Below, one piece after another: positions 8,967 to 38,787 of a DNA stretch of 64,000 nt (positions within the stretch are counted from its first letter, which is position 1; every line of letters starts with the position of its first letter). The translations under genes and the position numbers were made by a program. Source of the DNA: Tubulanus polymorphus (lineage: Eukaryota; Nemertea; Palaeonemertea; Tubulaniformes; Tubulanidae); NCBI RefSeq assembly GCF_964204645.1, contig NC_134028.1, positions 8,287,001 to 8,351,000 on the forward strand. The letters run 5' to 3'. The notes beneath the pieces were generated by a model that was given only the letters and a program-made list of their open reading frames with translations, was not told where the DNA came from and did not search any database.

Positions 8967-9045
8967 ATGGCTAATCGCATAAAAGGATTGGTTAGCAAGA
9001 AAAAACGGCGTTATCAAGAGGATGGCTTCGACCTTGATTTAACCT
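8967..9045 (+). CDS. PTEN: PTEN exon 1: PIP2-binding N-terminus
   Basis: Encodes residues 1-26 plus one base of Tyr27, 79 coding bases as in the human gene. Donor is gtatcc. The reading frame stays open through the intron to 9290, but that extension does not resemble PTEN. Confidence 0.95.
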
Positions 9046-35800: not shown

Positions 35801-38787
35801 ACAATAAAAATGACCGTTCACGTCTTTATGAAGGAGTTTATTGTACGAATTACTAATCGCATTAACTTGATTTCAGGAGCAAGATTTATAAATCTGCAGG
35901 TCACAACATTAGTTGATAAATGGTACGGCGAATCTCAGAAAAGAGCAGAAGCAGTGTTCTCTTTAGTAAGTCGTTTATTGCCAGCCTTCGACGCTCGCTC
36001 TTTATCAAGTCCAGTAGTAGACGACACTTAATCCAAACTGTCCATTTGTATCCAATGAAATGAAGCCGGTCTATGTAAAGATGAAGGATGAATGTATGGC
36101 TAGAGTGAAATGAACTTTGTTTCGCTTAATCGTCTGGGTCACTTTTGTAAACTGCAATGAAAATCAGTTCATTTCTACAACTGCCGGGTTTGTTACTGTA
36201 AACTTGATCATATAACTTTGAAAAAAAAAGTTATGTACAGGGTAGATAGGCCGCCAGCCGGGTCAACTTTTAAGTTCAGCTGAAATGAGAAACAAGGGTA
36301 AATTTTTTTGCCTATTGTATGGATTCAGGCAGCTGACTTACCGTTTAATGTTGTTTAATTTTTCAGGCAGTCAAACTTCAGCCTACTATAATATTTATCG
36401 ATGAGATAGGTACGTAAATGGTTTCCATTAGAATGTTCCCATTTTCCATGCCGAGGTCGTATCACCGGATCAGTTGCTATCGCTAGTTCGTTGCACGATT
36501 TCATCGAAAACGTATTTCTTATCGCAGATTCGTTTTTACGCGTGCGTAGTTCCGGAGACCACGAGTCGACGGCGATGATGAAAACGCAGTTCATGAGTTT
36601 CTGGGACGGATTGATCACCGATCCGAAATGTCAGATAATGATCATCGGAGCGACAAATCGACCGCAGGACGTCGACGCGGCGATATTGCGCAGAATGCCC
36701 AGTATGTTCCATATAGGATTACCGGTACGTTGAAATCTACAAATAGATAAACGAATAACTTAGCGCTCTGGATCCAGTTCCACAGTTGTTAGTTAGAGTT
36801 AAGATTAGTTCATTTTCACCTCTTACCAACTTTTGAGCAACTGGCCCCCTGATGGCTGTACTGCCTAGGACGGTAACGAAATAGGCCCGTAGCGTGACTG
36901 ATTTTATGGGCAGTTTGTTGTCCTTAAAACGCAGACCTTTTTTGGTAGACGATTTTGAAATGGCGCTAAAAGGTAAAATTGTTGCGTTTAGATGGCAAAT
37001 TTAAGCTCACAATTCCTATGGAGTTCAATGCCAGTCCCAAGTAACTGTAGGTCTATAAGATTAGTAGTACAGAGAGTACAAACCTGGGATTTTATTCTGC
37101 AACTTTTCAAAAGCAGACCATCTCCGCATTTTTGTCTTATCCCACCCCCCCCCCCCCATCCTCTTAACTTGAAGGGTCTTCGAATGGTGAGTTTTGACCA
37201 GTTCACAAAGTGGGGACTGTATGAATGTCTGTATATCATTGCTTCTCATTTCTACTTCAGACGAAAGAACAAAGAGAACAGATTTTAAAGCTTATCTTAG
37301 AAAAAGAAGATGTAAGTTATTGTGTCATTGGAGGGCGTATAAAACTTATTCGAAATTTATCTCATCTCCTTAGATGCTTATCTTATTTACGAATGTGTTT
37401 TTAGGTCGAGCCGAATTTGTCTATGCTAGAGATATCGGATAAAACGGAAGGATTTTCAGGAAGTGATTTACGCGAATTGTGTCGCGCCGCAGCTATTTAC
37501 CGAGTACGAGAATTCATGAGAAGTGAAAGTCTTCGTAGCCTGTCGGATGAGGCTATCGAACAAGCTAGGTAAGCGTATTAAGGGTGCTGAATCTTATCAG
37601 AGAAAATAACGAACTGTTCGAGTAGTGGGATAAATAGCCTATTGGAGTTTCTGTGATTTAGAAATAATTTTCACGTAGTTCAATTAGAAAGTCACCCTAC
37701 CCGGCGGGGATTCGAATCTTAGGCCATACAAAGAAATACCCTAGTTTCTCGAGAAAGTAAAATGCCGCCCGCGTCATGAAAAAAGTCCCTAATAAAAATT
37801 TAAAACACAAATGTGCTCGCCCGCGTCGGCAAAGCATCAATCGTCTTCTTTTTATAAAAATTAAAACCAACTCGTCCGCATAGCTGTATAGCATACGGCA
37901 GTGGTTTTTTTCTGCTGGCTTTTATATGCTCATCCTCCACGTACTGGTAATCCACATTTACGATCACAAAAACAGCGCCAGGTTCGTTTCCTTTTACTTA
38001 ATTTCGAGGAAGCGTGAAACTACAAAAATGATTGGCTAAGTTTCGATTAAATGAGTCGATAGAGCTTGATTTTATATAAAAAAAGTTCCCTCCCGCGTCT
38101 GTTCTATAAGTGTCAGGTTGAGCTTTTTATTTCAACTTTTTTATTTAAAAAAAGTAATAGAAATAAAATCCCCCCGCCCTCGTCACTTTCCAGAAAAAAA
38201 TCTGATGAGAAACTAGGGTATTTCTTGTGTGGCCTTATGGCATCGCTAGACCCTGCCACACTAGACCAGGTGCGCAGGTTTGCCACAAGAAAACTTGCGG
38301 CAAATCAGATTTTCTGTTGTATCATTGCCGAGGCGAATTTCACAATCGGCTAATAGTGACGTCATCTAAGCTGTGCATGAGACGCGTGAGAAGATCAAAC
38401 ATGCTTGTTCCTGTGTTTCCCGCGACGTGTTGGGCTTTAGAAACATTAATATTTACCTTCGCCAACTCGACAAGCTAGATGAAGGACGATTTAGGAGAAA
38501 ATTTGATGGATGTGCATCAGAGGAATTGCCACCATTTAATTACATATAGGGCAGCTTGGGCTAGCCCCCATTTTCCACTTCATTACCAGAAAAATTCTTT
38601 GTAACCTTGTTAAAAGTGTTCTTTTGTCAAATTGACTAATCGATATATTTTAATGATTATTTTCAGTTCCAACGACACGCAGCAACTTCGACCGATCTTG
38701 AAAAAAGATATACTCAGCGCCGTGAAGAAAATGCGAACTACCAATCATATATCTCAGAGACTTCTAAATCTTCCCGATCTTGACTAG
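32559..38787 (+). CDS. ATAD1: ATAD1/Msp1: outer-membrane AAA+ protein extractase
   Basis: Ten exons: 32559-32810, 33181-33222, 34444-34621, 35099-35167, 35877-35965, 36367-36409, 36528-36724, 37261-37311, 37405-37568, 38667-38787. ATAD1/Msp1 is a hexameric ATPase anchored in the mitochondrial outer and peroxisomal membranes that pulls out mistargeted tail-anchored proteins; in mammals it also acts on AMPA receptors. From ATG 32559 the protein has 401 residues: transmembrane segment [19 protein letters not shown] (about 59-77), Walker A GPPGCGKT (163-170), pore-loop region KWYGES, Walker B IIFIDEID (218-225) with Glu223, sensor-1 GATNRP (265-270), arginine-finger region AAILRRMP and second-region-of-homology features. 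From ATG 32667 it would have 365 residues, nearer human ATAD1 (361). The start is therefore unsettled. The tail LDLPDLD-like end (LLNLPDLD) is not conserved with vertebrates. Confidence 0.95.
33181..33222 (+). CDS. ATAD1: ATAD1 exon 2 (42 bp)
   Basis: Micro-exon encoding [14 protein letters not shown], matching human AEKLMKQIGVKNVK. Acceptor tttttcag, donor gtaatt, phase 0 at both ends. Confidence 0.93.
33874..34060 (+). repeat. Tandem repeat, two 95-bp units plus partial
   Basis: GGTGGTATATC at 33874 and 33969 starts two similar units sharing TTTTACTATGTATTTGTA and AGAGAT; a third start, GGCGGTATAAC, follows at 34054. The units differ at many positions and so are older than the 169-bp duplication in PTEN intron 1. 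Confidence 0.75.
34060..34200 (-). mobile_element. Possible tRNA-derived SINE fragment
   Basis: Read on the - strand it has GGGTTCGAATCCC, a B-box match, in a segment with GCTTTAGCAGAGTGG before it. No convincing A box at the right distance was found, so a tRNA gene is not supported. A SINE remnant or chance match are both possible. Confidence 0.3.
34444..34621 (+). CDS. ATAD1: ATAD1 exon 3: start of AAA+ domain
   Basis: Encodes [19 protein letters not shown], then the AAA-entry motif [20 protein letters not shown] and LLTAPK, ending one base into Gly. Matches human LSEYEMSIAAHLVDPLNMHV. Acceptor tttctag; donor gtcagt is acceptable but not optimal. Confidence 0.94.
35099..35167 (+). CDS. ATAD1: ATAD1 exon 4: Walker A
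   Basis: 69 bases encoding [20 protein letters not shown] plus KAA and one base of Gly. Binds ATP phosphates. Acceptor ttctag, donor gtacgt. Confidence 0.95.
35168..35876 (+). other. ATAD1 intron 4
   Basis: 0.7 kb of A/T-rich sequence with no coding or repeat that I recognise. Confidence 0.5.
35877..35965 (+). CDS. ATAD1: ATAD1 exon 5: pore-loop region
   Basis: Encodes [20 protein letters not shown] and [16 protein letters not shown] carries the pore-loop aromatic that grips substrate in this family. Acceptor tttcag, donor gtaagt. Confidence 0.94.
36150..36325 (-). repeat. 200-bp dispersed repeat family, copy 5
   Basis: Read on the - strand: TTTCTCATTTCAGCTGAAC, GTTGACCCGGCTGGCGGCC, CTACCCTGTACATAAC and GAACTGATTTTCATTGC. 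Located in ATAD1 intron 5, just upstream of exon 6. Confidence 0.6.
36367..36409 (+). CDS. ATAD1: ATAD1 exon 6 (43 bp): Walker B
   Basis: Encodes [14 protein letters not shown] plus one base; the Asp after DEI is split by the next intron. Glu of DE is the ATP-hydrolysis residue. Acceptor tttcag, donor gtacgt. Confidence 0.94.
36528..36724 (+). CDS. ATAD1: ATAD1 exon 7: sensor 1 and arginine finger
   Basis: Encodes [48 protein letters not shown] and FHIGLP. The two Arg in ILRRMP are the trans-acting arginine-finger pair. The exon is GC-richer than its surroundings. Acceptor atcgcag, donor gtacgt. Confidence 0.95.
36768..36851. mobile_element. Short inverted-repeat element, GGGGCCAGTTGCTCAAA family, copy 3
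   Basis: CTGGATCCAGTTCCACAGTT at the left and CTTTTGAGCAACTGGCCCCC at the right; imperfect inverted ends. It sits 44 bp after the exon 7 donor. Confidence 0.5.
37261..37311 (+). CDS. ATAD1: ATAD1 exon 8 (51 bp)
   Basis: Encodes [17 protein letters not shown], matching human LKQREAILKLILKNEN. Acceptor acttcag follows a run of 13 C (37145-37157) about 100 bp upstream; donor gtaagt. Confidence 0.94.
37405..37568 (+). CDS. ATAD1: ATAD1 exon 9: AAA+ lid
   Basis: Encodes [20 protein letters not shown], then [18 protein letters not shown] (sensor-2/lid helices) and [10 protein letters not shown] plus two bases. GFSGSDL is the conserved lid motif. Acceptor ttttag, donor gtaagc. Confidence 0.94.
37720..38237. 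mobile_element. 518-bp element with about 31-bp inverted ends in ATAD1 intron 9
   Basis: The left end 37720-37750 carries AGAAATACCCTAGTTTCTC; the right end 38207-38237 carries its inverse GAGAAACTAGGGTATTTCT. The outer parts TTAGGCCATACA and TGTGTGGCCTTA also pair. The interior has GCCCGCGTC-type blocks near both ends. No transposase frame, so non-autonomous. Confidence 0.75.
38225..38440. repeat. Dispersed repeat with conserved hairpin, copy 3
   Basis: Shares CACACTAGACCAGGTGCG, GCAAATCAGATT and GTGACGTCATCTA with the copy at 17080-17340. Its hairpin TTGCCACAAG-AAAA-CTTGCGGCAA (38280-38303) has 9 of 10 pairs. It partly overlaps the right end of the TIR element at 37720-38237. Confidence 0.5.
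38667..38787 (+). CDS. ATAD1: ATAD1 exon 10: C-terminal helix and stop
   Basis: Encodes [20 protein letters not shown], then [20 protein letters not shown] and TAG at 38785-38787. The RPI...L..A..KM pattern matches the C-terminal helix of ATAD1. Acceptor tttcag. Confidence 0.94.

What the first reader, a model, noticed from the sequence alone, without database searches (positions are those of the whole stretch)
8967..38787. PTEN and ATAD1 are neighbours, as in human 10q23, but in a different arrangement
Seen: a complete PTEN followed 4.9 kb later by a complete ATAD1, both on +. Known: in human the two genes are adjacent on 10q23.31 and point away from each other, with KLLN between, and are co-deleted in tumours. 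An invertebrate with the same pair but in tandem suggests an old linkage with a later inversion, or a chance rejoining. The functions (plasma-membrane PIP3 turnover; outer-membrane protein extraction) do not obviously explain it.
Basis: partly seen in the sequence, partly recalled or inferred. Interest (0 to 1): 0.7.

Follow-up and report, generated by a model that had tools for sequence, protein, structure and literature searches.

The report
PTEN and ATAD1: ancient animal gene neighbours
In this invertebrate, the tumour-suppressor gene PTEN and the gene ATAD1 sit side by side as they do in people, and several other genes from the same stretch of human chromosome 10 lie on the same chromosome, so the pairing looks inherited from a distant common ancestor, with one of the genes turned round.

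Summary
A complete 9-exon PTEN (8967-27690, 396 aa) and a complete 10-exon ATAD1 (32667-38787, 365 aa) lie in tandem on +, 4,976 bp apart; all 17 introns are GT-AG.

In human, ATAD1 lies 40 kb upstream of PTEN (PMC9815822). Here it lies downstream on the same strand. If human ATAD1 points away from PTEN (recalled), inverting PTEN alone converts one arrangement into the other.

Genome context favours shared ancestry over chance. The window lies on contig C4, 10.2% of a 268-Mb assembly. STAMBP/STAMBPL1, FAM13 and prosaposin genes lie within the 304 kb read. STAMBPL1 is in human 10q23.31 with PTEN and ATAD1 (PMC4346930); FAM13C and PSAP are on 10q21-22 (recalled). PAPSS, WAPL and MINPP1 are also on C4. 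Three other 10q23 families are not: RPP30 and EXOC6 on C2, PANK on C3, C2, C6 and C9.

It is an instance of a known kind: deeply conserved animal gene linkage. No functional reason was shown, no other invertebrate could be examined, and the ancestral orientation is undetermined.

The parts
1..1549 (+). 3' part of a ZNF207 (BuGZ) orthologue; the gene begins at about C4:8283068, 3.9 kb before the window
   Evidence: tblastn with recalled ZNF207, 95% identical over the zinc-finger exon at C4:8283913-8284041; the '..LIHPDEDISL' exon ends at window 208 (E 5e-11). The Pro/Met-rich segment at 1421-1549 is assigned with weak support (E 0.15; coding-like).
8967..27690 (+). PTEN, complete: exons 8967-9045, 17819-17903, 18481-18525, 20522-20696, 23208-23315, 24371-24512, 24887-25053, 26408-26626, 27520-27690
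   Evidence: gene model; and 38 sequence matches; Pfam PTEN_C2 E 3e-29 and DSPc E 3e-9. D92, H93, C124, K125, K128, R130, T167, Q171 invariant with recalled human PTEN.
27691..32666 (.). 4,976-bp gap between PTEN stop and ATAD1 start; no Pfam-detectable gene; AATAAA at 31666 could end a PTEN 3' UTR of about 4 kb (inference)
   Evidence: + frames; - frames.
32667..38787 (+). ATAD1 (Msp1/Thorase), complete: exons 32667-32810, 33181-33222, 34444-34621, 35099-35167, 35877-35965, 36367-36409, 36528-36724, 37261-37311, 37405-37568, 38667-38787
   Evidence: gene model; best PDB match 8vxt E 5e-126; Pfam AAA E 9e-36. [22 protein letters not shown] and an N-terminal hydrophobic segment read directly in the translation (motif names recalled).
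40399..43839 (-). 1147-aa open frame of a non-LTR retrotransposon (PHD finger, endonuclease, reverse transcriptase; CR1/L2-like by eye) between ATAD1 and the next gene
46224..64000 (+). ARHGAP17/ARHGAP44-type BAR-RhoGAP gene; runs past the window to C4:8352312 by tblastn and perhaps to C4:8359826 (Pro-rich segments, by eye)
   Evidence: 13 + strand segments in order from 46224 to 63755 (the first, 46224-46277, is weak, E 0.34); two weak + strand matches out of order (25382, E 1.7; 59434, E 0.11) left out. Pfam BAR (E 0.1, 0.02) and RhoGAP (E 2.6e-9); continuation.

Best explanation
PTEN and ATAD1 are a pair of unrelated genes that already lay close together on one chromosome of the common ancestor of this invertebrate and vertebrates, as part of a linkage block that also held PAPSS, MINPP1, WAPL and STAMBP and, with less certainty, FAM13 and prosaposin. 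Slow local shuffling dispersed most of the block along C4 but left these two adjacent. Since the split, one inversion that contained PTEN and not ATAD1 occurred in one of the two lineages; it changed the pair between divergent (human) and tandem (here) without breaking adjacency. Shown: tandem adjacency, intact reading frames, co-location of the other genes. Inferred: shared ancestry and the inversion. Not shown: any selection or shared regulation that keeps them together; simple inertia is enough.
For: Adjacency and orientation. Human adjacency, ATAD1 40 kb upstream of PTEN (PMC9815822, passages); deletions in human tumours that follow the linear order PTEN, KLLN, ATAD1, PAPSS2 (PMC10662290, passages); mouse has a similar architecture with Atad1, Rnls, Papss2, Minpp1 (PMC6033966, passages). 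Nearby on C4: STAMBP/STAMBPL1 at 8368436-8373169, FAM13 at about 8384788-8407493, prosaposin array at about 8192-8225 kb (Pfam USP8_dimer + JAB, RhoGAP, SapB). STAMBPL1 is listed with ATAD1 and PTEN in human 10q23.31 (PMC4346930, passages). Elsewhere on C4: PAPSS at 1.96 Mb, all 4 matches of the search; WAPL at 4.23 Mb, all 3 matches; a MINPP1-like gene at 24.3 Mb. Of 6 families answered by whole-genome search, 3 are on C4 (expected 10.2% each; P of 3 or more = 0.017). A prediction noted before testing, that MINPP1 would be on C4 and EXOC6 would not, held for both (129/132, 133).
Against: 3 of 6 answered families are not on C4: RPP30 (C2, one exon); PANK (10 matches on C3, C2, C6 and C9, the best on C3 and a multi-exon gene on C2); EXOC6 (C2). 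RPP30 and EXOC6, 190 kb apart on C2, fit a second ancestral block, but that idea was drawn after RPP30 and PANK were seen. MINPP1 had 8 family matches on C7, C4 and C10, so it had several chances to touch C4, and the 5 on C10 were not fetched; the P of 0.017 does not correct for this. The neighbours ZNF207 and ARHGAP17/44 are not 10q genes in human (recalled), and RNLS gave no match in the 304 kb. GLUD and IDE did not complete. The genome search is not sensitive: with PF00004 its 22 matches did not include the window's own ATAD1. No other invertebrate was examined, so independent rejoining on a conserved chromosome is not excluded.
Confidence: 0.8

Rival explanations
1. Same ancestral chromosome, independent adjacency: PTEN and ATAD1 shared a linkage group in the ancestor but lay apart, and local shuffling brought them together separately in vertebrates and here. 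The different orientation would then need no special inversion.
For: The macrosynteny evidence shows only a shared chromosome. PAPSS, WAPL and MINPP1, near PTEN in human, are spread over 1.96-24.3 Mb of C4 here, so local order is heavily scrambled.
Against: Exact adjacency within a chromosome of 27 Mb is still unlikely by chance (of order 1 in 1000 for a chromosome with some 2,000 genes; my estimate). Only one recognised gene (ARHGAP17/44) lies between ATAD1 and STAMBP here, and STAMBPL1 is in the same 2.24-Mb interval as both in human.
Confidence: 0.13
2. Chance: the adjacency arose here with no shared ancestry of the neighbourhood, and the reader noticed it because the human pair is famous.
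For: Post hoc choice of the pair; a scan of many windows will meet some human-like pairs by chance (about 1e-4 per pair).
Against: STAMBP, FAM13 and prosaposin in the same 304 kb and PAPSS, WAPL, MINPP1 on the same contig.
Confidence: 0.03
3. Functional constraint (compatible with shared ancestry): the pair, perhaps with STAMBP, is kept together because regulatory elements of one gene lie in or next to the other, or because joint control of PI3K signalling and mitochondrial proteostasis is favoured.
For: Conserved animal microsynteny can reflect co-expression or regulatory blocks (PMC8851819, passages). The adjacency has survived where other members of the block are scattered along C4.
Against: The promoter geometry is not conserved (divergent in human by recall, tandem here), which argues against a shared promoter. 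No conserved non-coding element was tested, since no second invertebrate genome was readable.
Confidence: 0.1

Closest known systems
PTEN-ATAD1 adjacency in human 10q23.31 and mouse 19qC1
   Same: The same two genes as neighbours (PMC9815822; PMC6033966).
   Different: Human: ATAD1 about 40 kb upstream of PTEN, divergent (strand recalled), KLLN between. Here: ATAD1 downstream of PTEN, same strand, 5.0 kb, no gene detected between.
Ancient animal microsyntenic blocks (PMC8851819)
   Same: Unrelated genes kept near each other over bilaterian distances, order not required to be conserved.
   Different: Published blocks need 3 or more genes, each separated by up to 5 intervening genes. PTEN, ATAD1 and STAMBP would qualify by position in this genome, but human STAMBPL1 is separated from PTEN by more genes (RNLS, LIP genes, ANKRD22: list in PMC4346930; order recalled). 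Whether the pair is in their tables was not readable.
Chordate/bilaterian linkage groups (PMC7269912)
   Same: Genes of one vertebrate segment found on one invertebrate chromosome, with boundaries where segments of different ancestry join (passages).
   Different: Which of the published linkage groups this block belongs to was not determined.

Membership tests
PTEN (PIP3 3-phosphatase) | Phosphatase + C2 domains with HCxxGxxR P-loop | tested here: met
   HCKAGKGRTG at residues 123-132; Pfam PTEN_C2 and DSPc; D92, C124, K125, K128, R130 invariant with recalled human PTEN.
PTEN (PIP3 3-phosphatase) | Closer to PTEN than to TPTE/VSP, auxilin or other phosphatases | tested here: met
   PTEN E 8e-136; TPTE2 E 7e-59; voltage-sensor phosphatases E 4e-52; auxilin E 1e-27.
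PTEN (PIP3 3-phosphatase) | Basic N-terminal PIP2-binding motif and C-terminal PDZ-binding motif | tested here: met
   [15 protein letters not shown] at 11-25; C-terminus ...SKV, S/T-x-V type as in human ...TKV (sequence; motif meaning recalled).
ATAD1/Msp1 (outer-membrane protein extraction) | Closest to ATAD1 among AAA proteins | tested here: met
   8vxt E 5e-126 and 7upr E 8e-126, both named outer mitochondrial transmembrane helix translocase; next VCP-like E 7e-91; MSP1 5w0t E 7e-86. No tree was built.
ATAD1/Msp1 (outer-membrane protein extraction) | N-terminal membrane anchor | tested here: inconclusive
   Hydrophobic stretch at about residues 10-28, aligned to the N-terminal part of recalled human ATAD1; no topology prediction or localisation was run.
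Conserved PTEN-ATAD1 microsynteny | Adjacent in two distant lineages | tested here: met
   Window and human/mouse.
Conserved PTEN-ATAD1 microsynteny | Adjacent in further phyla, as inheritance predicts | not testable with these tools
   No eukaryotic genome collection; scans of viral contigs and genome contigs found no confirmed relatives.
Conserved PTEN-ATAD1 microsynteny | Other human 10q23 genes on the same chromosome | tested here: met
   3 of 6 answered: PAPSS, WAPL, MINPP1 on C4; RPP30, EXOC6 (C2) and PANK (C3, C2, C6, C9) not; GLUD, IDE not answered.
Conserved PTEN-ATAD1 microsynteny | Conserved relative orientation | tested here: not met
   Tandem with ATAD1 downstream here; ATAD1 upstream in human, divergent (strand recalled).

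The most novel reading that the evidence does not exclude
PTEN, ATAD1 and STAMBP (AMSH) form a regulatory neighbourhood that selection has held together since before the bilaterian radiation, so that the 'collateral' loss of ATAD1 with PTEN in tumours breaks an ancient functional unit and not a coincidental one.
Probability: 0.08. Interest if true: 0.7.

Novelty: new member of a known kind. Interest (0 to 1): 0.42.

Why it matters
ATAD1 loss with PTEN is studied as a weakness of PTEN-deleted tumours (PMC9815822, passages). If the two have been neighbours since early animals, the collateral deletion is a by-product of a very old gene order, and invertebrates become usable for asking whether the closeness has any regulatory meaning. 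It also suggests that human 10q23 joins two ancestral linkage blocks, with the junction somewhere distal to STAMBPL1.

Tried and rejected
Led nowhere: the Rfam scan of the window gave 0 matches at the gathering cut-off. Pfam on three read-through + frames of window 8961-17962, which hold PTEN exons 1 and 2, gave 0 families, and the PF00004 genome search did not list the window's own ATAD1 among its 22 matches; so absence and in the genome searches is weak evidence. Six scans for PTEN or ATAD1 relatives (2 of genome contigs; 4 of viral contigs) confirmed none, so no contaminant invertebrate contig could serve as a third genome. Ten paper searches showed no title or abstract start on the pair in an invertebrate among the rows listed: 0 found; 1 of 1 listed in 19; 6 of 6 in 55; and only the top rows (20 of 1,933; 20 of 4,815; 15 of 1,888; 8 of 45; 10 of 61). 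Passages of six papers were seen. I suspected that Drosophila Pten and nmd (the ATAD1 orthologue) both lie near 31B, but could not confirm it and do not use it. Whether PTEN and ATAD1 are single-copy here was not tested: the PTEN protein search did not complete.

Considered and rejected: shared bidirectional promoter (genes are tandem here); operon (5-kb gap; trans-splicing not tested); a retrocopy of either gene (both have many introns); a VCP-type AAA in place of ATAD1; MINPP1 at C7 or C4:11.0 Mb (these match recalled ACP2, not MINPP1). The five His_Phos_2 matches on C10 were not fetched, so a second MINPP1-like gene there is possible.

Dropped rows: prosaposin matches with E above 1e-6 were not printed; low-complexity segments and the part 8289000-8351000 were not printed; weak out-of-order matches were left out of the gene models. 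Several coding-like segments (for example at 8174570, 8234929, 8432565, 8445699, 8449193) were not named.
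Full report
WHAT IS THERE. tblastn of recalled human PTEN and ATAD1 against the window gave collinear + strand exons for both. Splice-site models give PTEN 8967-27690 (9 exons, 396 aa, 221 of 390 aligned residues identical, 57%) and ATAD1 32667-38787 (10 exons, 365 aa, 205 of 354, 58%). All 17 introns are GT-AG. The gap from stop to start is 4,976 bp. PDB sequence searches put the proteins with PTEN (7jvx, E 8e-136) and the outer mitochondrial transmembrane helix translocase ATAD1 (8vxt, E 5e-126). D92, C124, K125, K128 and R130 of PTEN are invariant with human (their catalytic role recalled). 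ATAD1 has [16 protein letters not shown] and KWYGES (sequence). Both genes have intact frames and look functional (inference).

GENE STRUCTURE. The coding parts of PTEN exons 1, 2, 3, 6 and 7 are 79, 85, 45, 142 and 167 nt, the lengths I recall for human. One human intron (after codon 84, recalled) is absent, and there is an intron after codon 128, inside HCKAGK|GRTG. The third codon before the PTEN ATG is a stop, so a PTEN-long-type N-terminal extension is not encoded in that frame without splicing.

SURROUNDINGS. The genome search placed the window at C4:8287001-8351000 of a 267.8-Mb, 77-contig assembly; C4 is 27.4 Mb, 10.2% of it. I read 304 kb, C4:8167001-8471000. Named genes in order: a DOMON-domain gene (-) and an NCAPG2-like gene (+; named by eye, its only Pfam match a HEAT below cut-off); a prosaposin array (+, about 8192-8225 kb); an SLC22-like array (-, by eye only, no Pfam match); ZNF207 (+, 8283068 to window 208 and perhaps 1549); PTEN (+); ATAD1 (+); a non-LTR retrotransposon frame (-, window 40399-43839); an ARHGAP17/44-type gene (+, from window 46224 to 8352312 by tblastn and perhaps 8359826 by eye); STAMBP/STAMBPL1 (-, 8368436-8373169); FAM13 (+, about 8384788-8407493); a thioredoxin-like gene (+, 8442 kb), a P450 (+, 8455-8457 kb) and a bZIP gene (-, 8469 kb). 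Other coding-like segments were left unnamed.

WHY THIS IS OLD LINKAGE AND NOT COINCIDENCE. In human, ATAD1 is 40 kb upstream of PTEN (PMC9815822, passages). PMC4346930 (passages) lists ATAD1, KLLN, PTEN, RNLS, STAMBPL1 and PANK1 among the genes of one 2.24-Mb interval of 10q23.31, with PAPSS2 in the interval just proximal to it. Mouse has Atad1, Rnls, Papss2 and Minpp1 around Pten (PMC6033966, passages). FAM13C and PSAP are on 10q21-22 (recalled). Thus 3 further families within the 304 kb (STAMBP, FAM13, prosaposin) have a human member on 10q21-q23. Families there without one, as I recall, are NCAPG2, ZNF207 and ARHGAP17/44; the DOMON, thioredoxin-like, P450, SLC22-like and bZIP genes are too loosely named or their families too large to count. 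This is suggestive and not a formal test, because the interval was chosen after seeing the genes.

CHROMOSOME TEST. Eight human 10q23 families were chosen for location in the whole genome, and six were answered. On C4: PAPSS at 1.96 Mb, all 4 matches; WAPL at 4.23 Mb, all 3 matches; MINPP1 at 24.3 Mb. For MINPP1 the family search gave 8 matches (1 on C7, 2 on C4, 5 on C10); I fetched the C7 and both C4 places, and only C4:24.3 Mb matches recalled MINPP1 (E 7e-16), the other two matching ACP2; the C10 places were not fetched. Not on C4: RPP30 on C2 (one exon); PANK, 10 matches, the best a single open frame on C3, then a multi-exon gene on C2, others on C6 and C9 (which of these is the PANK1 orthologue was not settled); EXOC6 on C2, 190 kb from RPP30. 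So 3 of 6 are on a contig that holds 10.2% of the assembly (P of 3 or more = 0.017, assuming genes spread evenly by length, and not corrected for families with several matches). After four results I wrote down a prediction: the proximal genes (MINPP1, GLUD) on C4, the distal ones (EXOC6, IDE) not. Two of the four were then answered and both held; GLUD and IDE never were. The simplest reading is that human 10q23 joins two ancestral blocks, with a junction somewhere distal to STAMBPL1. Published work describes vertebrate chromosomes as built from 17 chordate linkage groups, also found as intact units in scallop (PMC7269912, passages).

ORIENTATION. With human ATAD1(-) PTEN(+) (ATAD1's strand recalled), inverting PTEN alone gives ATAD1(-) PTEN(-), which read from the other strand is PTEN(+) ATAD1(+), the arrangement here. 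Inverting ATAD1 alone gives ATAD1(+) PTEN(+), with ATAD1 upstream, which is not what is seen. One inversion holding PTEN but not ATAD1 therefore suffices, in either lineage. No outgroup could be read, so the direction is open.

FUNCTION. Nothing here shows why the two genes stayed together. The change from divergent to tandem argues against a shared promoter as the reason. PMC8851819 (passages) reports 256 new blocks of 3 or more genes in the bilaterian ancestor (45, 48 or 56 in shuffled genomes), 84% of them lost in vertebrates, and higher co-expression than random in the denser blocks, so relict neighbours are an expected kind of thing. I take inertia as the default and functional constraint as a minority reading.

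LIMITS. Human positions other than those cited are recalled. The species is unknown. One invertebrate genome was read, parts of it exon by exon. Absence of a match is weak evidence: the frame scan missed PTEN exons 1 and 2 and the AAA genome search did not list the window's ATAD1. Copy number of PTEN and ATAD1 in the genome was not tested. On rechecking, the PANK result was restated (best match on C3, not C2); the odds for the main reading were left unchanged, since none of its matches is on C4 either way.

Noticed in passing
window 8967-27690 and 32667-38787: CpG observed/expected is 1.67 in the PTEN CDS, 1.55 in the ATAD1 CDS and 1.05 in the whole window: no sign of CpG depletion in two housekeeping-type genes, unlike animals with gene-body methylation. 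It may point to a lineage with little or no germline DNA methylation.
   Followed up: partly
window 20697-23207: A 2.5-kb phase-0 intron splits the PTEN catalytic loop between K128 and G129 (HCKAGK|GRTG), where human has none (recalled); the human intron after codon 84 (recalled) is absent.
   Followed up: partly
window 40399-43839 (-): Non-LTR retrotransposon with an open 1147-aa frame carrying a PHD finger, endonuclease and reverse transcriptase: probably a young insertion.
   Followed up: no
window 32575-32598: Short upstream reading frame (7 codons and a stop) that ends 68 bases before the ATAD1 start (sequence).
   Followed up: no
C4:8192-8225 kb (L009-L012): Tandem array of prosaposin-like genes with near-identical copies of one exon about 5.3 kb apart (8213322, 8218574, 8223848).
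   Followed up: partly
C4:8241-8282 kb (L014-L018), - strand: Tandem array with a repeated motif (FDDIFETLGDLG or close), SLC22-transporter-like by eye; Pfam gave no match to the joined pieces.
   Followed up: partly
C2:27377066 and C2:27567271-27570324: RPP30 and EXOC6, both of human 10q23.3 (recalled), lie 190 kb apart on C2: perhaps a second old human chromosome 10 neighbourhood.
   Followed up: no
window 15931-16268; 16359-16420; 53198-53314: A 169-bp unit in two 99% identical tandem copies, and two long (TA)n tracts.
   Followed up: no
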